From: Bartonella schoenbuchensis R1
Lineage (GTDB): Bacteria > Pseudomonadota > Alphaproteobacteria > Rhizobiales > Rhizobiaceae
DNA: 64,000 nt
Reading direction: 5' to 3'
Assembly (NCBI RefSeq): GCF_002022685.1
Contig: NZ_CP019789.1
Coordinates: 1,183,501-1,247,500 of the forward strand
A program made the position numbers and the translations under genes. Shown here piece by piece: positions 7,411 to 58,339 of the stretch (positions are counted from its first letter, which is position 1; each line of letters opens with the position of its first letter). The notes under the pieces were generated by a model. That model was not told the DNA's origin, ran no database searches, and saw only the letters and a program-made list of their open reading frames with translations.

Positions 7411-8321
7411 TGGCTATTGGCAAAAAAGTCTCTAAGAAAAATCCACTGTCGTTTATTGCAAAACTGCATAAAGACGTAGGAAATATGCCCGATCTTCTTT
7501 TACAAGCACGCCTCATTGCTAATACACTAATGGCTGGCTGCCATAATCAACGTAAACGTGGCAATGGAGATAATTTTTGGCAATTTCGTCTATATGTCGA
7601 AGGGGAATCTACAACACATATTGATTGGCGTCGTTCTGCACGTGATGAACACACTTACTTACGTGAACGCGAATGGGAAACAGCCCAAACAGTTTGGATC
7701 TGGCTTGATCAAAGTGCTTCCATGCACTATTGCTCACGCTTTTCCAAAATCTCTAAAGGTAATCATGCGATTATTCTTTCCCTTGCACTGGCGACACTTC
7801 TTGCACGAGATGGTCAATATATTGCTATTCCTAATTTAATGGCTCCCACTATGACATCTAATATAGCAGAACGCATGGCAATAGCTTTAACAAATCACCA
7901 AGCTGAAAATTCATTTCCAGATTTCTCGGCTATTACCCGCTTTTCACAAGTCATAATAATTAGTGATTTTCTTGATCAGCCTGAACAAATCATTCAACAT
8001 TTAAAAATTTTGCTAGCAAAACAGGTCAATGCACATCTAATTGAAATTGCCGACCCTGCAGAAGAGAGCTTTCCTTACAAAGGACATACAGAGTTCTTTG
8101 ATCCTGAAACCAAACAAAAGCTTCTCTTAGGAAAAGCAGAAAACCTCCGCAAACATTATTGCAAACTCTACCAAGAAAGACGGGAAGAATTAATAAATTT
8201 CTGTTTACATCAAGGATGGAGTTACCATGTGAGTACAACTGACCGACCTTTAAAAGAAACCATCTTGCAACTTACAAAGAGAATGAATGCCTCTTTACCT
8301 CATACAGGGAGGGCAATTTGA
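7410..8321 (+). CDS. DUF58 domain protein (vWA-like)
   Basis: A 303-residue protein with the DUF58 signature YVEGESTTHIDWRRSARD followed by TYLREREWE, near residues 62-90. A vWA-like fold follows, with VWIWLDQSASM giving a DxSxS metal-site pattern. DUF58 proteins are the regular partners of MoxR ATPases and probably present or recognise the ATPase substrate. It overlaps moxR by one base, and its stop overlaps the TTG start of the next gene in TTGA. No membrane segment is obvious, unlike some DUF58 proteins, so it is likely cytoplasmic. Function beyond the MoxR partnership is inference. Confidence 0.9.
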   Translation: MAIGKKVSKKNPLSFIAKLHKDVGNMPDLLLQARLIANTLMAGCHNQRKRGNGDNFWQFRLYVEGESTTHIDWRRSARDEHTYLREREWETAQTVWIWLDQSASMHYCSRFSKISKGNHAIILSLALATLLARDGQYIAIPNLMAPTMTSNIAERMAIALTNHQAENSFPDFSAITRFSQVIIISDFLDQPEQIIQHLKILLAKQVNAHLIEIADPAEESFPYKGHTEFFDPETKQKLLLGKAENLRKHYCKLYQERREELINFCLHQGWSYHVSTTDRPLKETILQLTKRMNASLPHTGRAI

Positions 8322-11121
8322 GTTTTGAAGCTCCCCTAGTTTTGCTCGGACTTTTGGCCTTACCAGTCATTTGGTGGTTGTTGCGCACAACACCTTCCAC
8401 GCCTCATAAAGAACCTTTTCCTCCCTTACGCTTCTTGCTTAAACGAACTAATCAGCAAGAAACAGCCAACCATACACCTTGGTGGTTGTTATTGCTACGG
8501 CTCTTTATGATAGCATTAATTACTATCGCCTTAGCGCGCCCTATATGGAACAAAAATCCTGTTATTTTTTCCGGATCTCAACCGCTAGCACTTATTATTG
8601 ACAATGGATGGGCTTCTGCTGAAGAATGGAAAAAACGTATTACTGTTGCAAAATCCTTACTTGTACAAGCAGAAAAACATAAAAAAGACATTTATTTACT
8701 TGCAACAGCTGAAAACAACACCCAAGAAATTGGCCCCTTTTCTGCAGAAGTTGTAAGACAACATTTAATACATTTGCAACCTCAACCCTGGCCTGTCAAT
8801 CGCTTGCAGGCATTTAAAAAACTTATTGAAAAAACTGGCGAAAAACCTCTTGATATTGCCTACTTAAGTGATGGCTTACAAACAAACGAAGATAAAGAAG
8901 TTCTCACTTTCATTGAACAATTAAAGCCTAAAACACTTTTATGGTATTCAGCTGATATTTCTCACTTGATTGGCATAACAGGCATAGTCAATAATGATGG
9001 AAATATCGCAGCACGTATTATTCGCGCAGCCACTTATGATAAGTCTACGACGACATTAAGCCTTTATGATTTCAAAAGTCAGCTTCTTGGGCGTTTTACA
9101 GCACACTTTCATGAAGGAGAAACAACAGCTCTTGTCCCCCTTAATTTACCGCTTGAATTACGCAATGACATTGCATGGATAAAAATTGATAACCATGCTC
9201 AAGCTGCCGCAACTTTTTTAATTGATAGCCGTAATCAAATAAGTCGCGTTGCTCTTTTATCACCAAGCGTTAATGAAATGGTGCAGCCTTTATTGTCTCC
9301 ACTTTACTATGTCATCAAAGCATTGCAGGAACATGCACAGATTATAACAGCTGGCGGAGGAGAGCTTTCAGTTGATATTGATCACTTACTCAAACAAAAC
9401 CCGTCTGTTTTCATTATGGGTGACATTGCTAATATGTCAAAAGCAGCAGAAAAAAAACTATCTAATTTTGTGAATAAAGGGGGAGTGCTCATTCGTTTTG
9501 CTGGGGAGAATTTGAGTTCTACAGAACAATATGACAGTTTACTACCTGTACCACTACGTTCTGGTGAACGTTATCTTGGAAGCACTATGTCATGGGCTAA
9601 ACCACAAAAATTAGCACCTTTTGCAAAAAATAGCTTTTTCTTTGACCTTCCTTTTCCAGAAGAAGTTACTGTTTCACGTCAAATCTTAGCAGAACCAAGC
9701 TCAGACCTTTTTGAAAAAACGTGGCTTAGTCTTGCTGATGGCACCCCCCTTCTCACAGCTGCTAACTATGGAAAAGGCATACTCATTTTTGTCCACATTG
9801 CGCCTGATCCTACATGGTCAAACCTTCCGCTTTCTGGATTTTTTGCACAAATGTTGCAAAAGCTTACCACGCTTGGTGTACATGACCAGGAAACCCCTAT
9901 ACAAACACAGGCAACAACGACACAAAGCCCTTGGCGAACATTAAATGCTGATGGTCAATTACAGATACCCTCCCCTCATATTGCACCACTTGTTATTAAT
10001 GTACAAAAACCACCCCTTCCATCCTATGATACCCCACCTGGATTTTACGGTTCTAAAAATAATCTTTATGCATTGAATTTATTAAATCATTCATCACGTT
10101 TAACAAAACAATCGCCATTACCTGCCTCCTCAGGCAATGACCCGTTATCTTATGATACACAAGAAAAACATTTTGCTGGACCACTTTTAGGGCTGGCTAG
10201 CCTATTCTTAGCGCTAGATAGTTTTTTAGTTTTATGGATGGGAGGAGCTTTTCTTTTTAATCGACGAAGTAATATGTTCCTCTTACTTCCCTTGATAGCA
10301 AGTTTTATCGTCTTATTGTCTTATCCACCAACCACTCATGCACAACCCCTAGAAAAGCATGATGAAATCATGGTGCAAGCAGCTGGTGCCACCCACCTTG
10401 CTTATGTTGTGACTCATAATCATGAAATTGATACAACAAGTAAAAGTGGCTTGGAAGCACTCAGTCAATTTATCTCAGAGCGCACAATGCTTTCACCCGG
10501 TTCTGTTGTAGCGCTTGATCTTGATAAAGATGAACTTTCTTTCTATCCTCTCATTTACTGGCCTATTGACGCTGATGGCCCCATGCCAACGCAAAAAATC
10601 CTTGAAAAAATAAATGCTTTTATGAAACATGGTGGTACAGTTTTATTTGACACCCGTGATCAAATAAGCGCCAATCTGAACCTTGAAGAAACTGCTACCC
10701 CAGCCACACAAAGATTGCGTGCCATTTTAAGCGGATTAAATATCCCAGCCATTGAGCCAGCATCAGCTGATCATGTTATTACTCGTTCTTTTTATATTAT
10801 GCCCGATTTTCCTGGACGCTATCGTGGCTCACCTTTATGGGTTGAAGCATCATCAATAAATAAAAAAATAAAAACTCTATTGCTACTGGCGATAATGTTA
10901 GTTCTCTTCTTATCACTGCCAATAACTTCGCTGGTGCTTGGGCGCTAGACGAGAAAGGTACATGGAAATACCCACTTGTCCCCAATGACCCTATGCAACG
11001 CCTATGGGCATTTCGTGCAGGACTGAATATTGTCATCTACATGCTCACAGGTAATTATAAAGCCGATCAGGTTCATGTTCCTGCATTGTTAGAGAGCTTT
11101 AACAGAAAAAAAAGTCAATGA
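8318..11121 (+). pseudogene. BatA / DUF4159 membrane protein, frameshifted near its end
   Basis: Starts at TTG 8318 behind a strong GGGAGGG site. The first 44 residues are the BatA N-terminal domain (a membrane helix then PFPPLRFLLKRT), followed by a second helix, a vWA-like region, a helix pair near residue 650, and a DUF4159 domain. The frame reads as 876 residues and ends abnormally in an A-rich tract (10862-10874). Adding one base there continues the other frame as SIATGDNVSSLLITANNFAG, then WALDEKGTWKYPLVPNDPMQ, and stops at TGA 11119-11121, giving about 934 residues. That stop overlaps the next ATG as ATGA, confirming the repaired end. Either a single-base sequence error or a real frameshift. 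Confidence 0.85.
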
Positions 11122-13212
11122 TACCATCGATCACTTTTCAGTCTCTTCTACCCATCCCTTGGCTTCTTTTTTTAGGAGGACTTCCCACCTTTTTTATTAT
11201 CATTGGCCTCATTACGAAGCGCCCTGGAGCTTTGTTGCGTCTTATAGCATTGAGCTCAATCATTCTTGCTTTGCTTAATCCAATGATAATAAAAGAAGAG
11301 CGCCAACCTGTTAAAAGCACTGTGGGTATTGTAATTGATCAAAGCGAAAGTCAAACATTTGGTACACGTGCAGACGATAGTCACAAAGCGCGCATACAAT
11401 TAACAAATGAACTATCCCGCTATCCACAATTTGAGCTGCGTTTTATTGAAGCTGGAAAACTTTCTGAAAACCATTATGCACCATCAACAAATTTATTTAA
11501 TGCTCTAACACAAGCTATAGCTGATATACCCCATCTCGCTATGCAGGAACAATTTTGATCACAGATGGACAAGTGCATGATATTCCAAAATTATCAGAAC
11601 TTCATGATAGTGCACCAATTAATGCTCTTATAACAGGGAGAGCCAATGAATTTGACCGTCAAATTAAATTTATTTCTCCTCCCCGCTTTGCTCTTATCAA
11701 TAAACCACAAGTACTTTCCATTTTGGTAGAAGATAAAGGCCAACCTCAAGAAGCTATACCAGCGCAAGCAAATATTTCTATAAGCGTTAATGGTCAAGAA
11801 GTTGGCCATTATTCTGTAACCCCTGGTACTATTTTTCAAACTGAAATCACTCTTCCTCATGCTGAAAAAAATATCATTCAAGCTACAACTGATACTTATG
11901 AAGGTGAATTAAGCTTTGATAATAATCGCGCCATTGCTGTTATTGAAGGAATTAGAGAAAATTTGCGTGTTCTTCTCATCTCGGGTGCACCTTACAATGG
12001 TGAACGTACATGGCGTGATCTTTTAAAAAGTGATTCTAATATTGATCTTGTTCATTTTACTATTTTGCGTCCACCTGAAAAAGCAGACAATACACCTTTG
12101 AGCCAATTGTCACTTGTGGTTTTTCCTACAACCCAGTTATTTGTTGAAGAAATCAATAATTTTGATCTTATCATTCTTGACGGCTTTCAACATTCCAATG
12201 TGTTACCATTGATTTATTATGATTATATTGCTCAATATGTACAAAAAGGTGGTGCATTACTCATAGTAACAGGGCCTGAATTTGCTAATGAACAGTCACT
12301 TGCTAAAACACCTTTAATAAGTGTTCTACCAGCATTGCCAAATGGTGCTATTATTCAAAAACCTTTCCGCCCTACATTAACCAAAGAAGGTGAACGCCAC
12401 CCTGTTACGCGAGGTCTTGCTACCCCTACCCACCCAGCTTCTCAATGGGGGAGATGGCTACGACAAATTGCAATTCAAAACACAAACAAAAGTATTCCTA
12501 TTATGAAAGGAGCTGATGAACAACCGCTTTTGCTTCTTTCACATACTGGTAAAGGTCGAGTAGGTATGTTGCTTTCTGATGAAAGTTGGCTGTGGGCACG
12601 AGGTTTTGAAGGGGGGGACCTTACGCTGCTCTTTATCGTCGCATTGCTCATTGGCTCATGAAAGAACCAGAACTTGAAGAAGAAAGATTAAGTGCTGTAA
12701 ATGATCATCATCATTTAACAATTCGTCGACAAACACTTAAAGAGCAGCCAGAGCCAGTCGAAGTAACCTTCCCCTCTGGCAAAAAACAAAAGATCATTCT
12801 CACAAAAGAACAAGAAGGTGTTTTTACAAGAACTGTAAATACTGATGAAACAGGAATTTTTACCATCCACAATGGTGATCAAACAGTGCTTTCTTCTATA
12901 GGTGCACTCGATAGTCTTGAATTTTCTGATTTAATTTCAACAGAAGAAAAACTAGCCCCTATCAGCCAACATACTGGTGGTCATGTAGTACGTTTGCATC
13001 ATGAGAAAAAAGATGGCATTCACCTTCCTCCCATTAAATTGATTCAAACGAAAACAAAATCAATATCTCCTCGTGCTCAATCAATTGTTCTGAAAGAAGC
13101 AACAGAAACCCGTTTGGTTAATGCCTCATATTTTCCAATCTTTTCTGGATTTTTAGCTCTGATCACCTGCTTTTTACTATTCAGCAGTATGTGGTATCGT
13201 GAAAATCACTAA
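11118..13212 (+). pseudogene. Large membrane protein with vWA and amidotransferase-like domains, two frameshifts
   Basis: Last gene of the MoxR operon, present as three pieces (11118-11558, 11555-12661, 12658-13212) that join into about 698 residues. Two N-terminal helices precede GIVIDQSESQ, a DxSxS vWA metal site. Break one is at C-run 11529-11532: one added C gives PPSRYAGTILITDGQ. Break two is at G-run 12611-12617: one added G gives EGGGPYAALYRRIAHWLMKE. The middle has a class I glutamine amidotransferase-like fold (LRVLLISGAPYNG, LIILDGFQHSN), and a C-terminal helix ends the protein. Related Rhizobiales proteins are continuous. Function is unknown, probably inner-membrane and working with MoxR/DUF58. 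Confidence 0.82.
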
Positions 13213-22601: not shown

Positions 22602-23194
22602 ATGACTCTCTCTTTTTTATCACGCTGGACTGCAAATATTGCACTTTTGATAGCTCTTTTATTTGTAACGGTAGGTTCTGCAAACGCTGAACTTCAACCA
22701 ATGAACAAGAATAAATATTATTCAATGCAAGAAATTATCGGTTCTGGCCATAATTTTTTGGACAAACTACAAATAATCTAGCAACTGCAATTGAAAATAT
22801 CTTTTCGCGATACGGTCTTCCAAATGCTTATATTTTAGGAGAAGAAGCTTCTGGTGCTTTTTTTGCTGGATTAACTTATGGTGAAGGGCAAATCTTTACC
22901 AAAAATTATGGTCAGCATAAAGTCTTTTGGCAAGGGCCATCTGTAGGGTGGGACTTTGGCGGTCAAGGCTCTCGTTTAATGATTCTAATTTATGATCTCA
23001 ATGATATAAACAATTTATGGGGACGTTATGGCGGTATTTCAGGTTCAGCCTATTTAATTGCGGGAGTCGGTTTTCACGCTCTTAAACGTAATAATACTTT
23101 ATTGATTCCAGTACGTACAGGGGTTGGTGCACGTCTTGGCATTAATATGGGGTATTTAAAGTTAACCCCCATGCCAACATGGAATCCATTTTAA
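22602..23194 (+). pseudogene. eipA: DUF1134 periplasmic protein EipA, one frameshift
   Basis: DUF1134 family, named EipA in Brucella, where it supports envelope integrity and is reported to be activated by CtrA. A signal peptide ends in VGSANA near residue 29. The frame breaks in a six-T run (22754-22759): one added T converts the stop-bound HNFLDKLQII into HNFFGQTTNNLATAIENIFS. The rest follows to TAA 23194: GAFFAGLTYGEG, VFWQGPSVGWDFGGQGSR and RTGVGARLGINMGYLKLT, all DUF1134 landmarks. Repaired length is about 197 residues. It is divergent from chpT with about 209 bases between them. Confidence 0.85.
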
Positions 23195-30364: not shown

Positions 30365-31965
30365 TTATTTCTCTGCTTCACTATAGCGAATTTCAAAACT
30401 ATTCCAAAACCATTTTTTGACCTTAGGCCCCATACCAATGATATAATAGGTTTGAAATAAATAAGCCATAGGACCATGATACAGAATATAATGCTGTAAA
30501 TTGCGATATTGTTCAATGAGTTTATTTTGATCTTTCTCAGATAAAGCATCCATCACCATTTTATTAACCTTTACATCATAATAGCCAGACCGCAAAGCTA
30601 AAGACATGCCTTTCTTTTCAGTAAATGTTGGATCAGGATTAAAAACTTGACGTATCGAAGACAAATATCCATCGGGAATTGTTGTATGCCAGGACATTAT
30701 AGCAATATCATAATTTCCTCCACGAACGCGGCTTAACAATTGAGTTTGTGTCATTTTTTCAATTGTAAGATCAACCCCGATTTTGCGCGCATTTTCCTGG
30801 ATAGACTGTGCAACAGATGACATATAGGAAAGACTACCAATTAAAAGATTTGCTTTAAATCCATCTGGATAACCTGCTTCACTTATTAATTGTTTTGCCT
30901 TTTTTAAATCCAACTCAAATGGCACTCCTTCTTTTTCATCCAAAGCGCCTGGCACACCTAATGGCATATAGCTTGCACGAGGAATTGCAATACCTTTCAA
31001 AACTGTTTTACCAAGATTGTCATAATCAATAAGATAGCGCATGGCCAAACGCACTTTTTCATTAGCAAAAATTTCTCTTCTATTATTCAACGATAGATAA
31101 ACAGATTGTGGACGCAAAATACGATTAATCTTGACAGGCCCTCCTTGTTTTTCAATATCTAAAACATCTTCTGAAGAAAGATCACGCGCTATATCCACAT
31201 CACCCTTTTCCAAAAGTAATCTCTGGCTTGCTGATTCAGCAACATGGAGAACCAAAATTTGTTGAATTTTTGGTTTCTCTCCCCAATAATGTTGGTTGGC
31301 TTGTAAAACAACCCGCTCCCCAGGGAGCCAACGAACCAATTTATAAGGACCAACACAAGCCGAATGAGTAGCTAAATACTTATTCCCCATATCCCCATTA
31401 ACACTATTTGTTTCAAGTGTTTTCCGGTCAAGCAAAGCAGCAGTATAAGTTTGCCCAATTGTAGCCAATATAAGATGAACAGGATAAGGCTTATCAAAGT
31501 CTAACTGCAAAGTTGTATCATCAAGAGCTTGAATATTGGTTTCAACATTTTCTTTGGTAAATCCAAAATCTTCTAAAGCTCGAGCAAAGCCCAGATTTAA
31601 TTTAATGATTCGCTGCATTGACCAAGCAAGATCTTTTGCAGTAGCCACCCTTCCATCATCAAATTTTAAATCATCACGAAGATGAAAAACAATTCTCTTC
31701 CCATCATTTAAAACATCCCAAGACCGAGCCATAGCAGGACGGATTTTTGTAGAATCATGTTTATCAAACTGCACTAAAGAACTACAAATATTACTTAATA
31801 ATTCACTTGTTACAATTTCAACAGATTGGGCAGGGTCAAAATTACTGATTGAATCAATGTTCCATGCCATTATTAATGTATTTTTAGGCGGCACACTTAG
31901 CGCTACTGGCATTAAACTACTGAAAAAACGATTAACCCTAATAAAGCACAAAAACCCTTAAGCAT
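30365..31965 (-). CDS. ABC transporter substrate-binding protein (family 5), frame break in signal peptide
   Basis: SBP_bac_5 protein of dipeptide/oligopeptide/heme systems, about 533 residues. The mature part is intact: TLIMAWNIDSISNFDPAQ, FHLRDDLKFDDGR and ACVGPYKLVRWLPGERV. The signal peptide lies in another frame: MLKGFCALLGLIVFSVV starts at ATG 31965 and runs into a stop, while the main frame lacks a proper leader. Adding one T at 31914-31916 joins them as FSVVLMPVALSVPP. It sits between its paralogue (32363-33984) and the permeases, and is probably the main binding protein. Confidence 0.87.
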
Positions 31966-34890: not shown

Positions 34891-35517
34891 TCATCGACAA
34901 AAACACCCTTCAAGATGATCATTAACGATGCCTACTGCCTGCATAAAAGCATAACAAGTAGTGGGACCAACAAATGTCCAACCGCGTTTTTTTAAATCTG
35001 TAGAAAGACGAATAGAAGCGGCTGTTACAGGATTGTCCTGCCACATTTGAAAATCTATCTTTTCAGGACGCTCAGATGGTGGTGGTTGAAAAGACCAAAA
35101 ATAGTGGGATAAATTGCCCTGCTCTGCTATAATTTCTTGTGCCCTAAAAGCATTATTAACCACTGATCGGATTTTCCCACGATGGCGAACAATGCCTTTA
35201 TCTTGCATTAATATTTCGATTTTTGTTTCATCATAATGAACGATCTTTTCAAAATCAAAGTTATCAAAAGCACTGCGAAAATGGGATATTTTTTTCAAAA
35301 TTGTTAACCAAGAAAGCCCTGCTTGAAAACCTTCAAGACAAATTTTTTCAAATAAACGCAGATCATCAAAAACGGGCTTTCCCCATTCATGATCATGATA
35401 AGCGCAATAAAGCGGATCAGTTCCTGCCCAAAAACAACGAACTTTTCCATCCACCCCCATCAAAAGGCCTTCATTGAGTACAGAATCTACCGTATCAGAA
35501 GAGTGTTCCTTGATCAT
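34891..35517 (-). CDS. tag: DNA-3-methyladenine glycosylase I
   Basis: Removes 3-methyladenine from alkylated DNA. 208 residues. Family motifs are [60 protein letters not shown], and the C-terminal HLEGCFC that supplies His/Cys zinc ligands. The [16 protein letters not shown] stretch near the end is also typical. The N-terminus has about 27 extra residues; a Met at residue 20 is an alternative start. It overlaps the end of xseA by 23 bases, suggesting coexpression of two DNA-repair genes. Confidence 0.94.
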
Positions 35518-36908
35518 CTTTTTGCTGTTTTATCCGTTTGTTTTTTGAAGCACAATTAAGTGTTGAAACGTTAATTTCACCATCAAAAAAACGTAAACTC
35601 ATCCGACCTGTTTTAGGCAACTGCACTAATCGTTTAACCGGCTTATTATCTTGACCCAATGCCAAAACAAAACCCCGTTCTAAAATATTTTGATAAGAAG
35701 TGCTTTTTAAAAGCCTAAATGCCATCTCTGCTTGAGCACGTTGTTTTTCAACATTGCGTAAGAAAGCACGACGAAGATGTATCGTATATCCTTTTACATT
35801 GTATCGTGCTTTTTCACTATTTAACAAACGTGGAGAAAACCGAACACTAAGAGCACGAAAGTAAAAAAGTTTTTTCTCGTAGCTTATACAAAGAGCTCGT
35901 TGTAACCGGCTTGAAATTTCATCAAAACCACGACGTGGTAAAGCGAGTAATTGATCAGCAGTAAGCAAACCTCGTGAAATAGCACGCAATTTTTGTTGAT
36001 GAAAACTAAAATAACGCGTCAATCCCGCACGAAGACGTGCACCAAGTGACGCTAATTGTACTTCAAGATCAATTTTAACAGGAACAGCTCTTTCTGCTGC
36101 TCCCGTAGGGGTTGGTGCCCGCCAATCAGCAGCATAATCAATTAAAGTCCAGTCTGTTTCATGCCCAACTGCAGAAATAACAGGAATAGTCGATGCATGA
36201 ACAGCACGAACAACCGCCTCATCATTAAACCCCCATAAATCTTCTAAACTCCCTCCCCGCGTGCTACAATAATAAGATCAGGCTTTAATAAAACACCACC
36301 TAAAGGTAGGGCATTAAACCCCTCAATAGCACAAGCTACTTCTCGACCACTCGTTTCCCCCTGAACTCTTACAGGCCAAACCAAAATGTGCAAAGGAAAA
36401 CGATCTGATATACGATGAATAATATCGTGAATAACGGCTCCTGTCGGTGATGTCACAACCCCTATAATTTGAGGCATATAAGGCAGTGGCCTCTTTTTTG
36501 CTTCATCAAACAAGCCTTCATCTGCAAGCTTTTTCTTACGATTTTCCAAAAGTGTCATTAAAGCACCAACCCCTGTTGGCTCAAGAGCATCAATGACTAT
36601 TTGATATTTTGATGAACCTGGATAAGTAGTAAGTTTGCCTACAGCGATCACTTCCATTCCTTCTTCAGGAGGGAATTTAAGCTTTTCCATTAAGCTTCGC
36701 CAAATAACAGCCTCTAACCGAGCTTTATCATCTTTTAAAGCAAAATATGCATGACCTGAAGCATGAACACCACGATAACCAGATATCTCCCCCGGACCCG
36801 TATATAAGCAAATTTGTCTTCAATAATGCGTTTTAAAGCACTTGATACTTCAGAAACACTAAATTCTGCTACATTTGTTGCCACCGGTCGTGGACTAAAT
36901 AAATCCAT
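35495..36908 (-). pseudogene. xseA: Exodeoxyribonuclease VII large subunit, two frameshifts
   Basis: Degrades single-stranded DNA together with XseB. Three pieces join into about 471 residues, the family length. Start [20 protein letters not shown] at 36908, then the OB-fold. The first break is in a five-base run at 36789-36793; one added base gives [17 protein letters not shown]. The second is at 36255-36258; one added base gives [19 protein letters not shown], then [15 protein letters not shown], the catalytic-domain hallmarks. The C-terminal coiled coil ends in [11 protein letters not shown]. Because every repaired segment is conserved, sequence error is likely. Confidence 0.9.
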
Positions 36909-37301
36909 CGTATTTTTCAACTTTTTTAACCCTAAAAACACTCAACTCAAACTGTAACATAAATACATCTTTATGAAGATGAATAGTATCTCTATAAAGC
37001 GGAATCTCTTGAAACATATTCTATGTACAACATATTAACGCTTCCACAATAACATTATATTGAGAAATGCTCACCATCATCCAAGAGGTGAAAATTATTG
37101 GTAAAAATTGTCAATTAAACATGAAAGCAGTTCAAAAAAAACAGCTCAAATATTACACTAATATTTAAGGATGTAAAATTTGAGAGCAAAACCTAAAAAA
37201 CAAAGAGCAAATAAATAACGATAAAATCCGTCTTCTTCCTCCGTTATGTGTATATCATTTGCACTACATACATAGTTTAGTATATTTGAAGTCACGTCAA
37301 A
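36909..37301. other. Divergent spacer between xseA and the DUF6460 gene
   Basis: About 390 AT-rich bases that hold promoters in both directions. I see no ORF or strong hairpin. Confidence 0.35.
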
Positions 37302-39435: not shown

Positions 39436-40368
39436 ATGGCAATTCTCTTATTGGCCGAACATAATAATCATTCCTTATCAGAAGAAACTGCAAAAGCACT
39501 CACTGCTGCTCATTTAATTGGTGATGATGTTGATATTTTAGTCTGTGGAACAAAGGTTCAAGCGATTGCAGAAAATAGTGCCCAACTGGCTGGTGTTCGG
39601 CAAGTACTTGTTGCTGAAGCTGATTACCTAGCGCATCAATTAGCTGAACCTGTAGCAGCAACGATTATCGAGCTTGCCAATAACTATGATGTAATCATGG
39701 CAGCTTCCACAAGTATTGGCAAAAGTGTAATGCCGCGCGTAGCTGCTTTCCTTGACCTTATGCAAATTTCAGACATTATTGCTGTCGTTTCACCTGATAC
39801 CTTTAAACGACCAATTTACGCAGGTAATGCCATTGAAACTGTGCGTGCAAATGACCGCCAAAAGATTATAACAGTGCGTACAGCCTCTTTCACTCCAACT
39901 CTTCAAGGAAATTTAGCTCCCATTAAAACAATAACACCAGCTCCTAACCCAAACCTTTCTTCTTTCGTAACAGAAGAGGCTAACAAAAGTGATCGCCCTA
40001 ACCTTACATCAGCGCAAATTATTGTAGCAGGTGGACGTGGATTTGGCTCACAAGAGAAATTTATGGAACTACTTCTACCGCTCGCAAACAAACTAGGAGC
40101 TGCAGTGGGTGCTAGCCGTGCAGCAGTTGATGCAGGTTATGCTCCAAATGATTGGCAAATTGGACAAACAGGAAAAATCGTTGCTCCTCAACTCTATATT
40201 GCTATAGGCATCTCTGGTGCCATTCAGCATCTAGCAGGAATAATGGATGCACAAATCATTGTGGCTATTAATAAAGACGAAGAAGCCCCTATCATGCATA
40301 TTGCTGATTACGCCCTCGTAGGTGATCTTCACCATATCATTCCTGAGTTAGAGAAAGCTTTATTATGA
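39436..40368 (+). CDS. etfA: Electron transfer flavoprotein, alpha subunit
   Basis: 310 residues. The C-terminal FAD domain carries IIVAGGRGFGSQEKFMELL, GAAVGASRAAVDAGYAPNDW, QIGQTGKIVAPQLYIAIGIS and GAIQHLAGIMDAQIIVAINK, the ETF-alpha signature. The N-terminal domain is shorter and more variable. It lies 52 bases after etfB, and its stop overlaps the ETF-QO start by four bases (ATGA), so the subunits and their acceptor are coupled. Confidence 0.96.
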   Translation: MAILLLAEHNNHSLSEETAKALTAAHLIGDDVDILVCGTKVQAIAENSAQLAGVRQVLVAEADYLAHQLAEPVAATIIELANNYDVIMAASTSIGKSVMPRVAAFLDLMQISDIIAVVSPDTFKRPIYAGNAIETVRANDRQKIITVRTASFTPTLQGNLAPIKTITPAPNPNLSSFVTEEANKSDRPNLTSAQIIVAGGRGFGSQEKFMELLLPLANKLGAAVGASRAAVDAGYAPNDWQIGQTGKIVAPQLYIAIGISGAIQHLAGIMDAQIIVAINKDEEAPIMHIADYALVGDLHHIIPELEKALL

Positions 40369-42026
40369 ATGTACCTACACATCACCAACGTGAAAGTATG
40401 GAATTTGATGTAGTAATTGTAGGAGCAGGACCTGCAGGCCTTTCTGCCGCAATTCGTTTGAAACAAAACAACCCCAAGCTTTCTATTGTAATTCTCGAAA
40501 AAAGCTCAGAAATCGGTGCTCACATTCTATCAGGTGCAGTGGTTGATCCTATCGGCATAAATACACTTTTACCAGAATGGCAAAATGAACAAAATCATCC
40601 TTTCAAAACACCTGTCACTAGCGATCAATTTTTTCTACTGAAGCCAACAAGCACTAAAGTATTACCTAATATTTTTCTCCCAAAAATCTTATCAAATGAT
40701 GGTTGTTATATCGTTTCACTGGGGAATGTTTGCCGTTGGTTAAGTAAAAAAGCCGAAGCGCTTGGCGTTGAAATTTATCCCGGATTTGCCATATCTCAGG
40801 TCCTTTATAATGATAAAGGAGCTGTTATTGGTGTTCTCACAGGTGATATGGGTATTGAAAAAGAAGGAACACCTGGAAAAAATTATATTCCTGGCATGGC
40901 TTTACTAGCAAAATATACCCTCATTGCTGAAGGAGCGCGTGGCTCAATTGCTAAACAACTTATACAAAAATTCGATCTTAGCAAGGACCGTGAACCACAA
41001 AAATTTGGTCTTGGTCTTAAAGAACTTTGGGAAGTTGACTCCTCAAAGCATAAACCTGGTTTAGTTCAGCATTTCATCGGCTGGCCATTGGATAACAACA
41101 CTGGTGGTGGAGGTTTTCTTTATCATCAAGAAGACAATTTAATTTCTGTTGGCCTTGTTGTACACTTGGATTATAAAAATCCTTATCTCTCTCCTTTTGA
41201 AGAATTTCAACGTTTCAAAACACACCCCAAACTGTATGAACTTTTAAAGGGTGCAAAGCGCCTTGCTTATGGTGCACGTGTCATCAGCGAAGGTGGCTGG
41301 CAATCTGTACCAAAACTTACCTTTCCTGGTGGTGCACTCATTGGATGTTCTGCTGGCTTTGTTAATGTACCTCGTATAAAAGGCTCACATAATGCCATAT
41401 TATCCGGTATACTAGCAGCTGACAAAATAGCTGATGCCCTTGCTCAAAATCGTGCCCATGATGAAGTCAAAGAGATCGAAGATCATTGGCGCAAAGGCCC
41501 TATCGGAAAAGATCTTTATATAGCACGTAATGCTAAGCCACTCTGGGCAAAATATGGCACAAAATACGGAATTAAACTTGCTATATTTGATATATGGTGG
41601 CAACAGATTTTTGGCTTTTCTTTATTTAGAACACTTCCTCATGGAAAGCCAGACTATGCATATTTGGAACCAGCAGAAAAATTTCAACCTATAGCTTATC
41701 CCAAGCCAGATGGTATTGTGACTTTTGATTGCCTTTCCAGTGTAGCACTTTCCAATACGCATCATACGGAAAATCAACCTTGCCATTTAAAAATAGCCTC
41801 ACTGGAAAAACACAAGAACTCTGAATATGCAATCTATGGGGGACCTTCTACACGCTATTGCCCCGCTTGTGTCTATGAATGGCTAGACCATAATGATCAT
41901 AAAATTTATATCATTAACGCCTCAAACTGCATCCATTGTAAAACATGTGATATTAAAGACCCTAACCAAAATATCAATTGGACTTGCCCGCAAGGAAGTG
42001 AAGGACCTTTTTACCCAAATATGTAA
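40365..42026 (+). CDS. Electron transfer flavoprotein-ubiquinone oxidoreductase
   Basis: Passes electrons from reduced ETF to ubiquinone at the inner membrane. 553 residues. FAD binding is VVIVGAGPAGLSAAIRL near residue 15 and ILEKSSEIGAHILSGAV. The ubiquinone/membrane region includes GGWQSVPKLTFPGGALIGCS. The 4Fe-4S cluster Cys are in RYCPACVYEW and in NCIHCKTCDIKDPNQNINW, ending TCPQGSEGPFYPNM. Full-length and coupled to etfA. Confidence 0.95.
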   Translation: MNVPTHHQRESMEFDVVIVGAGPAGLSAAIRLKQNNPKLSIVILEKSSEIGAHILSGAVVDPIGINTLLPEWQNEQNHPFKTPVTSDQFFLLKPTSTKVLPNIFLPKILSNDGCYIVSLGNVCRWLSKKAEALGVEIYPGFAISQVLYNDKGAVIGVLTGDMGIEKEGTPGKNYIPGMALLAKYTLIAEGARGSIAKQLIQKFDLSKDREPQKFGLGLKELWEVDSSKHKPGLVQHFIGWPLDNNTGGGGFLYHQEDNLISVGLVVHLDYKNPYLSPFEEFQRFKTHPKLYELLKGAKRLAYGARVISEGGWQSVPKLTFPGGALIGCSAGFVNVPRIKGSHNAILSGILAADKIADALAQNRAHDEVKEIEDHWRKGPIGKDLYIARNAKPLWAKYGTKYGIKLAIFDIWWQQIFGFSLFRTLPHGKPDYAYLEPAEKFQPIAYPKPDGIVTFDCLSSVALSNTHHTENQPCHLKIASLEKHKNSEYAIYGGPSTRYCPACVYEWLDHNDHKIYIINASNCIHCKTCDIKDPNQNINWTCPQGSEGPFYPNM

Positions 42027-42628: not shown

Positions 42629-43722
42629 GTGGTCCCTGTCACACGTGAAGCTATTCGTGAAGAACTGCGTAAAGTTAAAGGACCAAATTTTGAAAGCGAT
42701 ATTGTATCGCTTGGGTTGCTTTCAGAAATATTCATTACAGGTAGTAAGGTTTTCTTTTCCATTACGGTTCCCCGTGAACGCGCACAAGAATTAGAACCAT
42801 TACGCCGCACTGCTGAAAAAGTAGTGTGTGCTATGGATGGAGTTGAAGCAGTTGTTGTCACGCTTACGGAAGAAAAACAATCGCCGACATTTTTTCAAAC
42901 AGACAAAAATGCAGCTTTTTCTATGCAGAAGCGTAAAGCAAATGCATTGCCTATGAAAATGCCGATAGAAAATGTACGGCATATCATTGCTGTTGCTTCT
43001 GGAAAGGGGGAGTTGGTAAATCCACAATGGCAATAAATATTGCTTTGGCTTTACAAGATGCTGGTTTTAAAACGGGGTTGATGGATGCAGATATCTATGG
43101 CCCGTCTCTGCCACGTTTGACAGGGCTTGTAAATCAAAAACCACAATTGGTTGATGGCAAAAAAATTCAACCTCTTGAAAAGTTTGGCCTGAAATTAATG
43201 TCGATGGGCTTTTTAGTTGAAGAGGAAAAACCAATCGTGTGGCGTGGTCCTATGGTGATGGCAGCTGTAACTCAATTATTAAGAGATGTTTTATGGGGGC
43301 CTCTCGATGTTTTGGTAGTTGATATGCCACCTGGAACAGGGGATGCACAATTAACACTAGCCCAACAAGTGCCTTTAACGGGTGCGCTGATTGTTTCTAC
43401 TCCGCAAGATCTTGCGTTAGTTGATGCACGCAAAGCTGTAGAAATGTTTACAAAAGTCAAAGTCCCCATTCTGGGGCTTATTGAAAATATGAGCTACTTT
43501 ATTGCGCCTGATACGGGAAAACGCTATGATATTTTTGGCCATGGTACTGTGCGTGCAGAAGCAGAAAGCCGAGATATTTCCTTTTTGGCAGAAGTGCCAC
43601 TTGATGCAACTTTCCGATTTTCTTCAGATGGTGGAGTACCAATTTTTGTTGCTGAGCCAGAAGGTAGGCATGCCAATCTTTACCGTACAATTGTTCATCA
43701 AATAAAGGGAAGATTTTCTTAA
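42629..43722 (+). pseudogene. apbC: Mrp/ApbC iron-sulfur cluster carrier ATPase, one frameshift
   Basis: P-loop NTPase that delivers Fe-S clusters to apoproteins. About 364 residues after repair. GTG start, then a DUF59 (MIP18-like) domain: KVKGPNFESDIVSLGLLSEI. The frame fails in the five-G run at 43006-43010, exactly inside the deviant Walker A: one added G converts GKGELVNPQW into GKGGVGKSTMAINIALALQ. The rest is intact: GLMDADIYGPSLP, DMPPGTGDAQLTLAQ and GLIENMSYFI. The motif it restores is the active site, so a true break would abolish function; a sequence error is more likely. Confidence 0.9.
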
Positions 43723-44522: not shown

Positions 44523-45428
44523 TTGGATATGCAAAAGAGTATGAGTGAAAAAGTATATTTTATAGGTTCTCATGCCTTTTGTGCACCAGTTATAGAGCCA
44601 GCGCTTTATTTAGTGGCAACACCTATCGGAAATCTTGCAGATATAACTATTCGTGCTTTACAAGTTCTTGCACAAGTCGACATTTTAGCTTGTGAGGATA
44701 CGCGGGTAACACGTGTTTTGTTAGAACACTATGGTATTCAGAAAAAAACATTTCTTTATCATGAGCATAACGCACAAAAAGCAGGAGTAAAATTATTAGA
44801 AGCTTTAGCAGAAAATAAAACAGTAGCTCTTGTATCAGACGCTGGAACACCGCTTATTTCTGATCCAGGATTCAAATTAGTAAAAGAGGCGCGTAAAGCT
44901 GGTTACAAAATCGTTCCAATTCCCGGTGCATCAGCTCTTTTAGCTTCTATTATAACAACGGGGTTTCCTACAGATAGTTTTTTCTTTGCAGGTTTTTTAA
45001 GTGCGAAGAAAACGCAGCGCCAAAAACGGCTGGAACAATTAAAATCGATACCTACGACCTTAGTGTTTTATGAATCACCTCATCGTCTTGTAGAAACTTT
45101 GCAAGATATGGTTACTATTTTCACAGCCGACCGGTCAGCTGCAATATGCCGTGAATTAACAAAAAAATTTGAAACTATAGATGTCTCCAATTTAGGAAAT
45201 TTAGTTGAAAAGTATGGAAAACAAGCTCGTATTCGTGGAGAAATTGTTATACTCGTTGGAGAAGCAACAGCATCTTTAGAGAAAATGAGTACTCAAGAAA
45301 TTGATGCGATGTTACTAGAATTGCTTAAGATATATCCTGCAGCAAAGGCAGCTGCTTTAGTTGCAAAAAAAACAGGCTTGAAAAAACAAGAACTTTTCCA
45401 ACGATCAACCCTTTTAAAGGGAGGATGA
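44523..45428 (+). CDS. rsmI: 16S rRNA (cytidine(1402)-2'-O)-methyltransferase
   Basis: Tetrapyrrole-methylase-fold enzyme that modifies C1402 in the decoding centre. 301 residues. LYLVATPIGNLADITIRAL, ACEDTRVTRVLLEHYGI, LVSDAGTPLISDPGFKLV, PGASALLASIITTGFPTD and VFYESPHRLVETL are all RsmI landmarks. The N-terminus has about 25 extra residues before LYLVATP. The stop overlaps the start of yraN. Confidence 0.95.
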   Translation: MDMQKSMSEKVYFIGSHAFCAPVIEPALYLVATPIGNLADITIRALQVLAQVDILACEDTRVTRVLLEHYGIQKKTFLYHEHNAQKAGVKLLEALAENKTVALVSDAGTPLISDPGFKLVKEARKAGYKIVPIPGASALLASIITTGFPTDSFFFAGFLSAKKTQRQKRLEQLKSIPTTLVFYESPHRLVETLQDMVTIFTADRSAAICRELTKKFETIDVSNLGNLVEKYGKQARIRGEIVILVGEATASLEKMSTQEIDAMLLELLKIYPAAKAAALVAKKTGLKKQELFQRSTLLKGG

Positions 45429-45800
45429 GATTTATGCAAAAAAAGCATAAAAAAATTCTTTTATAAAGGTATTCGAGCGGAAAAATGGGCAGCTTGGTGG
45501 TTGCGTTTAAAAGGGTTTCATATTGCTGAAATGCGTTTTAAAACAAAATGTGGGGAAATTGATTTAATTGCACGGCGTGGAAATCTTGTTTTAATTGTTG
45601 AGGTGAAAGCACGTTCAACATTAACTGAAGCAATGACTGCAGTTTGTCAGGTAAATGAAAAACGCATTATATCGGCGGCTAATGTTTGGTTAGCACGACA
45701 AAAAGATTACCCTCTTTTATGTGTGCGCTTTGACCTAATTGCAATTTTACCGTGGCGTTGGCCACATCATATTTCAGCATTTATTGAGTCTCATAGATAA
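45425..45800 (+). pseudogene. YraN/UPF0102 family protein, frame error near start
   Basis: Endonuclease-fold UPF0102 family, usually next to rsmI in this group. The body is clear: GIRAEKWAAWWLRLKGFHIA, RFKTKCGEIDLIARRG with the PD-(D/E)xK-like E-I-D, and LVLIVEVKARSTL. The start is ATG 45425, overlapping the rsmI stop as ATGA, or ATG 45434. From either, the frame runs into a stop near 45464. The body frame is reached if one A is removed, or two are added, in the A runs at 45438-45444 or 45449-45455. Unlike the other breaks here, this is not a simple one-base loss. About 124 residues repaired. Confidence 0.85.
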
Positions 45801-46145: not shown

Positions 46146-46949
46146 ATGAAAGTTGGCTTTTTGGGAACGGGTACAATTAGCGCTGCAATGATTGATGGCT
46201 TAATGGCTAGCGCTTTTGAGGTGCATTCAATTATTGTTTCACCACGCAATACACAAATAGCAGGGCGCCTTTCCCGTGATTATGACAAGGTCATAATTGC
46301 TGAAAACAATCAAGCATTGCTAGACAGGTGCGATTGTGTTTTCCTTTGTCTGCGCAGCCAAGTTGCTGAAGAGATATTACGCCCTCTTCGTTTTTATCCA
46401 GAACAACTTGTTGTTTCTGTACTTGCAATGGCTAGAGCAGCAGATGTTGAGAAATGGATAAATCATAAAGTTTATCGTGCTATGCCTCTTCCTTTTGTAG
46501 CAGAATGCAAAAATTTAACACCAATCTATCCCGACCATCCATTTTTACGTGCCATGTTTGACAAATTAGGTGGCACATTGGCGCTTGAAAGCGAAGATCA
46601 GTTTAACCTTTTCATGACAGCTGGATCACTTATGGGGGTGTATTTTAATTTTATAGAAACAGCACATCAATGGTTGGTAACACAAGGAATAGAAAAACCT
46701 CAGTCAGCAGATTTTCTTAGCACGATGTTTGGAAATCTTGCTGATGAAATGCGCAAAACGACAAAAGCTCATTGTTCAACACCTATTGATTTTGCACTTC
46801 TTGAGAGAGAACTTTCAACCAAGGGAGGGACAAATGAACTTTTATCAAATTGTTTTTCTAACCAAGGCGGGCGGGCTGCTTTAATAACGGCCCTTAAAAC
46901 AACTCTACAAAGAATTGAATCTTTATCCACAGATCAAAAAAATGCTTGA
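46146..46949 (+). CDS. Pyrroline-5-carboxylate reductase-like protein
   Basis: About 267 residues from Met 46146 (MKVGFLGTGTISAAMIDGL), an NADP-binding Rossmann start. VFLCLRSQVAEEILRPLRF and VVSVLAMARAADVEKWI follow, and a helical C-terminal dimerisation domain is present. The pattern fits the ProC family, but the typical active-site segment near GSGPAY is altered (FMTAGSLMGVYF), so a proline role is not certain. Annotated in related genomes as ProC or an NADP oxidoreductase. Starts at 46128 and 46137 are also possible. Confidence 0.78.
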   Translation: MKVGFLGTGTISAAMIDGLMASAFEVHSIIVSPRNTQIAGRLSRDYDKVIIAENNQALLDRCDCVFLCLRSQVAEEILRPLRFYPEQLVVSVLAMARAADVEKWINHKVYRAMPLPFVAECKNLTPIYPDHPFLRAMFDKLGGTLALESEDQFNLFMTAGSLMGVYFNFIETAHQWLVTQGIEKPQSADFLSTMFGNLADEMRKTTKAHCSTPIDFALLERELSTKGGTNELLSNCFSNQGGRAALITALKTTLQRIESLSTDQKNA

Positions 46950-47083
46950 ATAATATTTTTTAGTCTGATAGCGTACATAGAGTGATAGGTCATATTACAT
47001 ATCTGACAGACATGATGTCGTTCTATCATTAGCTATAAAATAGCATGTCCCTTTTTATTTTTTTTCGTTATAGGGACGCGATT

Positions 47084-48301
47084 ATGGGTTCAAGTATACT
47101 TACTAATAGATCTGCGATGACTGCATTGCAGACACTTCGTGCAATTGATTCTAATTTAGACAAATCAAAAGACCGTATTTCAACAGGTCTGCGTATTAAC
47201 AACGCTGGTGATAACGTAGCTTACTGGTCCATTTCATCAATGATGAAGCATGACAGTAATACAATGAGCACTGTTATTGATGCCATTAATTTGGGTAAAG
47301 AACAGGTGAGCATTGCTGCTACAGCTGTTGACCTCACCAAAGAAGCGCTTGATAATATCCAACAGTCATTGGTTACTGTTAATGGAAAAGGCGAGGTTGA
47401 TGTTGCTAAGCTTCAAGATTCAATTAAAGCAAATATGACGAACATTTCGAATGCAGTTCAGTCTTCTTCATTTGCTGGTAAAAACATGCTTGCCAATGAT
47501 GGTCAAACTGCTAGCATAGCTGCTGGTTATCGTCGTGAAGGTACAGCTGTCTATGTTGATATGATTGAAGTTGGTGGTGCAGAACTGAACTTTGGTGTTA
47601 TGGGTGAAAATGGCATCATTGATATGTCAGAAGGTGTTTTGCAAAACATTTTTGGATTAGATGCAGAAAGTAATTTTGCTGGAGCCCTTGGAACTTTCAA
47701 TGGGGCGGAAGAAACTTACAACGGCTTGGTAAATGACCTTGCAAAGGCGAAAGCTGATTTGGCGAAATTGGTGGCCATATATGGTGCTGAACCTGAAGAA
47801 GAAGATCCAGGACATGACGAAATAGAAACAGCCCAAGGTAAAGTAGAAGAAGCTGAAACAGCGCTGTACGGTAATCCAGATGATGATGATGACTTAGGAG
47901 GAGTCGGAACATTCAATGAAGCAAAAGATGCTTTTAAATTCGAAGCTAGTAATGTCACCTTAGCTGAATTTGTTCAAATGGAGAATGTTGGTGCAATGTC
48001 TGCAGAAGCACAAAATATCCTTCTAGGCCGCCTTCAAAATAAAGTGCGCGATGCAGTTGATCTAACTCTTACTGCGGGTGCTAAGATCGGTTCTGCAGTT
48101 AACTTAATGAACACTCAGCTCGAATTTGTTAAAAGATTGCTGGACAATGTTGATGCAGGGATTGGTTCAATGATTGATGCTGACATGAATGCAGAATCTG
48201 CAAAATTATCTGCTTTGCAAGTTCAGCAACAGCTTGGTGTTCAGGCTCTTTCTATTGCAAACCAAGGTAGTCAGAACATTTTATTGTTGTTCCGTAATTA
48301 A
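47084..48301 (+). CDS. Flagellin
   Basis: Filament subunit, 405 residues. The N-terminal D0/D1 helices are typical: SSILTNRSAMTALQTLRAID, SKDRISTGLRINNAGDNVAY. The C-terminal D0/D1 ends in ALQVQQQLGVQALSIANQGS then QNILLLFRN. A highly acidic stretch with many Asp and Glu sits at about residues 235-272 in the surface-exposed middle. The start MGSSILTN is chosen because flagellins begin just there; an upstream Met at 47045 is unlikely. It stands alone between the ProC-like gene and rpmH, with no other flagellar gene adjacent, and has its own terminator. Confidence 0.95.
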   Translation: MGSSILTNRSAMTALQTLRAIDSNLDKSKDRISTGLRINNAGDNVAYWSISSMMKHDSNTMSTVIDAINLGKEQVSIAATAVDLTKEALDNIQQSLVTVNGKGEVDVAKLQDSIKANMTNISNAVQSSSFAGKNMLANDGQTASIAAGYRREGTAVYVDMIEVGGAELNFGVMGENGIIDMSEGVLQNIFGLDAESNFAGALGTFNGAEETYNGLVNDLAKAKADLAKLVAIYGAEPEEEDPGHDEIETAQGKVEEAETALYGNPDDDDDLGGVGTFNEAKDAFKFEASNVTLAEFVQMENVGAMSAEAQNILLGRLQNKVRDAVDLTLTAGAKIGSAVNLMNTQLEFVKRLLDNVDAGIGSMIDADMNAESAKLSALQVQQQLGVQALSIANQGSQNILLLFRN

Positions 48302-48321
48302 TTCCATAGAGTTTTTACGTG

Positions 48322-48352
48322 AAAAAGGCTGCGCACCCGCGTGGCCTTTTTT
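48322..48352 (+). terminator. Terminator of flagellin
   Basis: A 13-bp stem with two wobble pairs (AAAAAGGCTGCGC with GCGTGGCCTTTTT), a four-base loop and a run of T. Confidence 0.85.
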
Positions 48353-48563
48353 ATTAACTAATCGAATGATAAATATATTGCTTAAGTCAACAAACTTCTT
48401 GCACCTTTTAAAAATACGAAAAAATAATCTAAGATTGACTTTTTTATGCTTTTCCTTATAGGGTAGCATTTACCTTAGAATTATCTGATAGAATAAGATT
48501 ATTCATCGAGCATATTATTTGCTATAGAACTAAGAAGGGCCGCACACAACGGTATTTGAATAA

Positions 48564-56253: not shown

Positions 56254-57428
56254 TATTATTTTCCTTAATTTTGGATACACCTTACTTGTGGCGTGAAAAA
56301 CGCGTGTATTGAAAAGGGTCGTGCTTTAATTGATATCTTTTTAATATGTGCACTGTCTTTGAATTTACTCCCTCAAGCATACTAATCCTTTGGCTGTGAT
56401 TTTTGCGCTAGAAACGGTCTTTTCTATTCCACTGGATATTTAAGATGCGGATTACAATCCATTAATTTTTTTATTAATTTTACTTTAATTATGATAATAA
56501 AAACCCTCTTGGAATACAAGAATAAACCCAATAATAAATGTAAAAATAACTAATAAATCTTTAGGCTCTAATTCTAATATTTTTGCTACTTGGATTAAAC
56601 TAAACAGTCTATAAAATCGTTAAACATTTAAGTTGTTCTGCCTTTAAGTTAACTCAGCAATGATATGATCCTTGCGCTCACTCACGTTAGCAAATATTTG
56701 TTTTAGGCTAATGAAGAATTCTAAAAGTTTAGGAGTAATTTTACTTATAATATTATTGTAAGGTAGGAAGTTTTATCTACAACACAAAAAAACAAGAAAT
56801 ATTAAGGGTAGTAGAAGATATTACTTATGCCGTTCCGTGAACAAAACATTTAAAACTTCAAGCTTCTTCTCATCTCCAGATGAAGCACAAGTTATACGCT
56901 TTATATCTTTATATCTTTCCCGGAAATGGTTAATCCAGTTATTATGTTATGATACTTATATTTCTGAGTGCATTAAGAATAGCCATCAATTTATCCACAA
57001 AAGATCTTTTCCTCCTTTTGGCAGCTTGTATTTATACACGAAAGAAAACAGGACAATCTTTTCATATTACAGCTATTTATAACATTAAGCATTGCTGAGT
57101 CAGAAGCTGGAAGAAGAGTAAGAATAACAATCCAAATAAAATGACTTGATGTCTGCATCAACGTATTGGAGGAGTGCTACCTAAACTGAAAGAGTGTGTT
57201 ATTGTACTCCCTCTTAAAGAAATTAAAAACAAAGTGATATATTGTTAAAATCGTTTTGATTATTTATATAAAAAACCGAAAACAAGCACATATAAGCTTA
57301 TCTTGCATAAAAAGCTTCGAAATATATTGTAAAGCATTGTTTTTAAGACAAAGAAAAAATCAACATTTTGTAAATTTTTTGATGTAAAAATAACATTACG
57401 TATTTAAATATTACCTTTGGAGAAAAAT
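56254..57428. other. 1.2-kb gene-poor spacer beside the phage remnant
   Basis: No full gene. A 32-codon minus-strand frame near 56286-56384 (MLEGVNSKTVHILKRYQLKH) has an AAGGA site and could be a tiny phage gene or fragment. An 81-codon frame at 56837-57082 is not convincing. The right end holds the promoter of the outer membrane protein gene. Confidence 0.35.
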
Positions 57429-58339
57429 ATGAATACAAAATGTTTAATAGCTACATCTATTTTCACTTTAGCTGCAATTTCTTTAGTACAAGCAGCAGAT
57501 AGTATAGTTTTTAAAGAAAATTATAAAATGGGTGTTTCACCAATTGTTAGACCACCTACTTTTTCTTGGAATGGTTTTTATATTGGGGGACAAGTTGGTG
57601 GTTTCTCAAGTAAGATTTCCGCGATGAGTCATGATAATGATATTCCCTTACTTCCTGATAAGAGTGGTAGACCTAAAAAATGGGTTCCAGTTAATGAAAA
57701 ATTTTTGCCTAAACTTTCTGGTTTCATAGGTGGTTTTTATGCAGGTTCCAATGTTGATCTCAGTAATGGTCTTATCCTAAGCATTGATACGGATATAATT
57801 CTATCTGCACGAAAAAATACAAACACTATCGTAATTACCCCCCATCTACAGACGATAATATGCCAGAAGAAAGTAACTTAATACCGAATCATGAGAATAG
57901 CCAATATCGACTGTCTAGAAGAGATGTCCAATTAAGAGAAAATACAATTGATATAGAAGAGGCAGAAAAAACTATCATAACATTTAAGTATACTTTAAAC
58001 CAAAAATGGACAGGTGCCACACGGATACGTATCGGTTTTGCTGCTGATCGTATTATGCCTTATATCGCTGGTGGTGTTGCTTATGGACAGTTCCAAAATA
58101 TTCTATCGCTATCAAGCACAGCAACACATGACAAAGAGCTTAATAATATGTCGGATGAAACAAAAACAATGATCGGTTATACTTTTGGTGCGGGTATTGA
58201 TTTTGCAATGACCGATGATATTATTTTGCGTGCAGAGTATCGTTATTCGGATTTCGGAAAAAAGAAATTTGCTAAAGATAGCTTTGAACTTCATTACAAG
58301 ACTAATGATTTTCGTGCTGGAGTATCTTATAAATTCTAA
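57429..58339 (+). pseudogene. Outer membrane beta-barrel protein (Omp25/hemin-binding type), one frameshift
   Basis: An eight-strand porin-like barrel of the Omp25/Omp31 family, which in Bartonella includes hemin-binding proteins. Start MNTKCLIATSIFTLAAISLV (57429, GGAG upstream), signal cleavage near VQA. FSWNGFYIGGQVGGFSSKI is the typical first strand. The six-C run at 57838-57843 breaks the frame; one added C gives VITPPSTDDNMPEESNLIPN. The barrel then ends with TRIRIGFAADRIMPYIAGGV, DIILRAEYRYSDFG and the terminal Phe of AGVSYKF. About 303 residues repaired. Whether it binds hemin is inference. Confidence 0.85.

What the first reader, a model, noticed from the sequence alone, without database searches (positions are those of the whole stretch)
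8318..58339. Ten frame breaks, all fixed by adding one base to a short homopolymer
Breaks at 10862-10874, 11529-11532, 12611-12617, 22754-22759, 31914-31916, 33278-33281, 36255-36258, 36789-36793, 43006-43010 and 57838-57843 each need exactly one extra base in a run of 3-7 identical bases. Phase arithmetic agrees for each, and each repair restores conserved residues (for example GKGGVGKST in apbC). Genuine decay should also give insertions, substitutions to stop and larger deletions. A one-sided, homopolymer-only pattern in housekeeping genes suggests systematic under-calling in the sequence.
Basis: partly seen in the sequence, partly recalled or inferred. Interest (0 to 1): 0.7.

Follow-up and report, generated by a model that had tools for sequence, protein, structure and literature searches.

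The report
Homopolymer base-calling errors fake broken genes
Eight genes in this stretch of a Bartonella genome look broken, but the same kind of one-base shortfall also cuts essential genes elsewhere in the genome, so these are almost certainly sequencing mistakes and not real gene loss.

Summary
The ten breaks, in eight genes, are really in the sequence. Against three close relatives (97, 95 and 91% DNA identity over one 2.6 kb stretch), each is a one-base shortfall beside a run of one base, in a gene that relatives read in one frame. One coordinate is off (31914-31916 should be about 31921-31928), and one further break was missed (UPF0102 gene, 45425-45800, two bases short).

In 142 ORFs (130 kb, window plus sampled stretches elsewhere), I kept 19 one-base shortfalls and could confirm no insertion. 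The rate climbs with observed run length: G/C runs of 3, 4, 5 and 6 give 0.26, 1.1, 4.4 and 13%. Broken genes include single-copy ileS, and metG, parE and mutS. A cell without isoleucyl-tRNA synthetase would not live, so these breaks must be consensus errors.

"Systematic" needs a limit: most runs of 4-6 agree with relatives. The broken mutS suggested a real mutator, but mutS carries three such shortfalls while its substitutions sit mainly at third positions, and the lineage has no transition excess. Known artefact class; low interest.

The parts
8318..11121 (+). BatA N-terminal/DUF4159 protein gene, one frame break near 10862-10868; intact (934 aa) in G040, G029, G012
11118..13212 (+). GATase1-like protein gene (698 aa in relatives; family score just under Pfam's cut-off), two frame breaks, near 11529-11532 and 12611-12617
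22602..23194 (+). EipA (envelope integrity protein A) gene, one frame break near 22754-22759; intact in three relatives
30365..31965 (-). family 5 solute-binding protein gene, frame break near 31921-31928 (not 31914-31916), affecting only about the first 13 codons
32363..33984 (-). second family 5 solute-binding protein gene, frame break near 33278-33281; open frame of 472 aa in G040 (G029 and G012 copies are cut by stretch ends and were checked only by local alignment)
35495..36941 (-). xseA, exodeoxyribonuclease VII large subunit, two frame breaks near 36255-36258 and 36789-36793; found as one match in 69 of 71 genus genomes (partial in a few), as two in G000 and G041
42629..43722 (+). apbC/mrp, iron-sulfur carrier ATPase, frame break near 43006-43010 inside the nucleotide-binding loop (motif name recalled)
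45425..45800 (+).
57417..58339 (+). outer-membrane beta-barrel (Porin_2/OMP_b-brl) gene, frame break near 57838-57843; a real on/off switch is least excluded here
61814..64000 (-). 5S and partial 23S rRNA genes, control: all gaps against G040 and G012 lie in spacers; against G029 there is one nine-base gap at about 63619 that the other two do not show

Best explanation
The breaks are consensus errors in the assembly. When a run of identical bases was read, its length was sometimes called one base too short, more often for G/C runs and for longer runs, and later polishing did not correct it. Each such miscall shifts the frame of the gene on paper while the living cell's gene is intact. Shown here: the breaks, their direction, their run-length dependence, their presence elsewhere on the chromosome, and their presence in essential single-copy genes. 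Inferred: that the cause is a long-read base caller or consensus step (technology unknown), and, by my own arithmetic from 19 per 130 kb of ORFs, that the chromosome may hold roughly 110-290 of them.
For: Ten of ten window breaks are one base short (p = 0.002). In 142 G012-intact ORFs (130,275 nt, window included): 20 of -1, 3 of +1, 1 of -2, 1 of +2. One -1 was dropped because G029 and G040 share it. Two +1 sit in a 102-aa ORF that also has stops here and is probably spurious; the third, and the +2, lie just upstream of the ORFs of this genome. Reverse control: 147 own-intact ORFs (127,974 nt) show 2 of -1 in G012. Essential genes broken: ileS, one match in G000, full length in one match in 66 of 71 genus genomes; metG, in two matches only in G000 and G011 and partial in G057 and G062; parE against G012 alone. 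Shortfalls per observed run: G/C 3, 4, 5, 6, 7 = 3/1167, 3/273, 4/90, 3/23, 1/5; A/T 3, 4, 5, 6, 7 = 0/3934, 1/1798, 0/714, 2/230, 2/77. Stop substitutions: 0 of 13,249 codons. mutS: three shortfalls, yet 23 of 30 lineage substitutions at third positions and no stop. Published long-read assemblies show this class: deletions beside runs of two to eight, 23.3% pseudogenes in one example, completeness scores overrating quality (PMC12007338, passages).
Against: Most runs of 4-6 agree with relatives. dnaE and rpoC are intact. In the ten genes flagged as broken, W-specific substitutions are at third positions in 96 of 171 against 202 of 309 in the others (p = 0.0498), a weak hint of relaxed constraint; two flagged genes are ambiguous (one search lists them). 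The +1 and +2 upstream of two ORFs could instead be real insertions that cost those genes their first codons. The grpE break lies near its end (nt 633 of 687). The rRNA genes show no shortfall against G040 and G012, but about 2 kb would give less than one. I had no raw reads and found no second assembly of this strain.
Confidence: 0.95

Rival explanations
1. A real mutator strain: mutS is truly broken, so slippage in homopolymers is not repaired and frameshifts accumulate across the genome.
For: mutS reads in four frame pieces in this genome and in one frame in 7 of 7 other genomes searched. Rate rises with run length, as real slippage does too (recalled).
Against: ileS and metG are broken in single copy. 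mutS has three separate one-base shortfalls while 23 of 30 of its lineage substitutions are at third positions. Transition/transversion in the W lineage is 3.95 against 7.53, 5.97 and 4.09 in relatives, so no transition excess of the kind I recall for mismatch-repair loss. No confirmed insertion.
Confidence: 0.02
2. Ordinary reductive gene decay in a host-restricted bacterium.
For: Several broken genes are dispensable in other bacteria (recalled): xseA, apbC, solute-binding proteins. Third-position fraction is slightly lower in flagged genes.
Against: No stop substitutions in W (0 of 13,249 codons), no W-only frame-changing gap longer than two bases well inside a gene (one of five bases lies at a gene end), and essential genes hit.
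Confidence: 0.02
3. At least one site is a real phase-variable (contingency) run that switches a surface protein on and off, for example the outer-membrane barrel gene at 57417-58339. This can hold beside the error explanation for the rest.
For: Mononucleotide repeats of nine bases change an adhesin gene by frameshift in Bartonella (PMC11466379, passages). The barrel gene has a six-base run and variable surroundings.
Against: The window runs are 4-7 bases. That paper saw no mutations in the other A/T and G/C repeats of nine or more bases during its experiment. Most of the other genes are not surface proteins.
Confidence: 0.05
4. The frames are read through by transcriptional or ribosomal slippage, as in some insect endosymbionts.
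For: Frame-rescuing slippage at homopolymers is described (search listing and starts of abstracts only).
Against: Observed runs are as short as 3-4 bases, 3 in ileS. Relatives keep open frames at the same sites, so the DNA of relatives shows no conserved need for slippage.
Confidence: 0.01

Closest known systems
Gene-fragmenting homopolymer deletion errors of long-read assemblies (Kastor, PMC12007338, passages seen)
   Same: One-base deletions beside short runs; many apparent pseudogenes; high completeness score all the same (99.98% here)
   Different: There A/T runs gave most errors; here G/C runs are hit at a higher rate per run. Technology of this assembly unknown
Nanopore systematic errors (Homopolish, PMC8011154, passages seen)
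   Same: Indels in homopolymers left after polishing that shift reading frames and can be seen by comparison with related genomes
   Different: No reads here to tie the errors to nanopore
Bartonella mononucleotide contingency loci (PMC11466379, passages seen)
   Same: Frameshifts in runs of one base in Bartonella
   Different: Those are nine-base repeats in an adhesin gene with both deletions and insertions; these are observed runs of 3-7 bases, mostly in housekeeping or motility genes, one way only

Membership tests
Homopolymer under-calling error of an assembly | Indels lie in or beside homopolymers and the rate rises with run length | tested here: met
Homopolymer under-calling error of an assembly | Deletions far exceed insertions | tested here: met
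   19 kept shortfalls, no confirmed insertion; 3 of +1 and 1 of +2 seen and set aside for stated reasons
Homopolymer under-calling error of an assembly | Hits regardless of gene importance, essential genes included | tested here: met
   ileS, metG, parE broken; dnaE and rpoC intact
Homopolymer under-calling error of an assembly | Reads or a second technology show the longer run | not testable with these tools
   no reads held
Genuine pseudogene | Mixed lesions: stops, insertions, larger deletions | tested here: not met
   0 stops in 13,249 codons; inside genes the breaks are one base short, apart from one two-base case
Genuine pseudogene | Loss of codon-position bias in lineage substitutions | tested here: inconclusive
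   96 of 171 against 202 of 309 at third positions, p = 0.0498; mutS 23 of 30
Mismatch-repair mutator strain | Excess of transitions in the lineage | tested here: not met
   Ti/Tv 3.95, lowest of four
Contingency locus | Long run (nine or more) in a surface gene | tested here: not met
   longest runs near the ten sites 4-7; one of eight genes looks like an outer-membrane barrel
Contingency locus | Run length varies among clones | not testable with these tools
   one assembly only

The most novel reading that the evidence does not exclude
A living Bartonella with a truly broken mutS has lost frame in very many homopolymers, and residual slippage in transcription or translation keeps enough IleS, MetG and ParE for growth.
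Probability: 0.01. Interest if true: 0.9.

Novelty: not a real feature. Interest (0 to 1): 0.12.

Why it matters
As a warning. This genome scores 99.98% complete, yet 19 of 142 compared ORFs carry an isolated frame event (a few of those are not real breaks), so pseudogene counts, gene-loss claims and a mutator reading of it would be wrong. Single-copy essential genes with broken frames make a quick test of assembly quality. Other genus assemblies (G040, G041, G011) show similar signs in the few genes looked at.

Tried and rejected
Rejected: global under-calling of all runs; decay, mutator, contingency and slippage readings (see rivals). The rRNA test was uninformative: no gap inside 5S or 23S against G040 and G012, one nine-base gap against G029, and the second copy identical over the 1,319 nt that matched. 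The search of plasmid records with 20 kb of the second contig found nine records, the eight listed at 77-87% identity and at most 34% cover, so no independent copy. The protein search with G029's XseA returned clusters, so same-species strains could not be read apart. The first guesses for matching G012 stretches mostly missed and more were fetched where matches had been found. In one search the test of which run touches the gap gave zeros at many sites because of strand and gap placement; it was redone by local alignment. Dropped before counts: 15 of 64 chunks without four-way cover; 8 of 53 gene clusters and two rRNA-antisense ORFs of the 45 kept; one of 43 genes without four rows in the Ti/Tv count; events within 4% of ORF ends or within 60 nt of another event, and ORFs under 90% cover or 87% identity, which removed two further -1 events in diverged genes (L114, L138) and several near-start or compensated events; one metG site shared by relatives. 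The mutS region was looked at on purpose and is not in the 142.

Full report
The window is bases 1,183,501-1,247,500 of a 1,672,626-base chromosome contig in a two-contig genome of 1,728,387 bases. That it is a Bartonella follows from the named relatives.

Observation. Three genomes of the genus are close: G040 (97% over 39436-42026), G029 (95%) and G012 (91%). They are largely syntenic with the window. ORFs of at least 100 aa from each were compared with the window, and local alignments were made at each site. All ten sites show the window one base short beside a run of one base; at 57838-57843 G012 is too diverged to count, and for the gene at 33278 only G040 gave a whole ORF. The eight affected genes encode a BatA/DUF4159 protein, a GATase1-like protein (two breaks), EipA, two family 5 solute-binding proteins, XseA (two breaks), ApbC/Mrp and an outer-membrane barrel protein. 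One coordinate is off: the break given as 31914-31916 lies at about 31921-31928. One break was missed: a UPF0102 gene, 45425-45800, two bases short.

Controls inside the window. In 43 genes with aligned relatives, the window has 0 substituted stops in 13,249 codons; G040 has 3, G029 1 and G012 5, some at gene ends. In the same genes G040 has two frame breaks well inside genes and G029 one, besides differences near gene ends. Coding runs on which all three relatives agree are mostly right in the window: G/C runs of 4 and 5, 30 of 30 and 8 of 8; A/T runs of 5, 6, 7 and 8 or more, 134 of 134, 47 of 47, 18 of 19 and 2 of 3 (49 of 64 chunks). So the shortfall is not general; it strikes a minority of runs.

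Elsewhere on the chromosome. Ten own stretches were chosen by position before looking at them; five more were added where G012 matches had been found. All were compared with G012. With the window included, 142 ORFs (130,275 nt) intact in G012 gave 25 isolated frame events in this genome: 20 of -1, 3 of +1, 1 of -2 and 1 of +2. One -1 (metG, 5' end) is shared by G029 and G040 and was dropped. Two +1 lie in a short ORF that also has stops here and is probably spurious; the other +1 and the +2 lie just upstream of this genome's ORFs and could be start differences or real insertions. Nineteen -1 remain, seven in the window and twelve outside, with no confirmed insertion. The reverse comparison, 147 ORFs (127,974 nt) intact here, shows 2 of -1 in G012. 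By observed run length, the share of runs with a shortfall is 3 of 1167, 3 of 273, 4 of 90, 3 of 23 and 1 of 5 for G/C runs of 3, 4, 5, 6 and 7, and 0 of 3934, 1 of 1798, 0 of 714, 2 of 230 and 2 of 77 for A/T runs of 3, 4, 5, 6 and 7.

The deciding point is which genes are hit. ileS has one match in this genome, covering residues 116-978 only, while 66 of 71 genus genomes have it full length in one match (the other short or split ones are G040, G041, G045 and G062). Three relatives and two further genomes support the longer reading at the site. metG is in two matches here and in G011 (the G011 difference lies at another column), and partial in G057 and G062. parE is broken, and grpE near its end, against G012, the only genome compared for these two. 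That a cell without isoleucyl- or methionyl-tRNA synthetase cannot grow is established knowledge, not a result here. dnaE and rpoC are intact, which fits a random minority being hit.

The strongest rival came from a check meant to close it: mutS is in four frame pieces here and whole in 7 of 7 others, so a real mutator was possible. Its three breaks are again one-base shortfalls beside runs, 23 of 30 lineage substitutions in it are at third positions, and it has no stop. The lineage has Ti/Tv 3.95, the lowest of four. Together with ileS and metG, this puts mutS among the artefacts. Against the artefact reading stands a weak drop of third-position substitutions in flagged genes, 96 of 171 against 202 of 309, p = 0.0498.

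Known kind. Long-read assemblies are reported to carry deletions beside runs of two to eight bases, 23.3% pseudogenes in one example, and completeness scores that overrate them (PMC12007338, passages); nanopore systematic errors are mainly homopolymer indels that shift frames (PMC8011154, passages). Bartonella contingency repeats are nine bases long in an adhesin gene (PMC11466379, passages). A search for papers with Bartonella, homopolymer and frameshift listed five, of which I saw passages of one; I did not find this genome discussed, which is no proof that it is not. Rough extrapolation, by my own arithmetic: 19 per 130 kb over about 1.25 Mb of coding DNA (assumed) is about 180 such errors.

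Noticed in passing
G000:C1:117056-119698 (L160): mutS is in four frame pieces by three one-base shortfalls; whole in seven of seven other genomes searched.
   Followed up: yes
G041, G040, G011: Other Bartonella assemblies also have split conserved genes: rpoC and xseA in G041 (ileS short there), ileS in G040, metG in G011. The same kind of error may be present there.
   Followed up: partly
window 46908-48379 and about 42.1-42.5 kb: The three relatives appear to have a second, inverted copy matching the flagellin gene region near the place of window 42.1-42.5 kb, and in G040 the segment between lies inverted. The window seems to have one copy.
   Followed up: no
P0001: A protein 100% identical to G029's XseA over 99% of it is named as Helicobacter pylori in its source: probably a mislabelled or contaminated record.
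   Followed up: no
42 of 43 window genes: Lineage substitutions in the window have the lowest transition share of four genomes; extra transversions might be base-call substitutions.
   Followed up: no
window 327-967 and 37865-38358: Small length differences at gene ends, one of them a +1, that could be real variation in start or end.
   Followed up: partly
G000:C2 (55,761 bases; L128): The first 20 kb of the second contig matches parts of Bartonella plasmids, 77-87% identity in the eight listed records.
   Followed up: no
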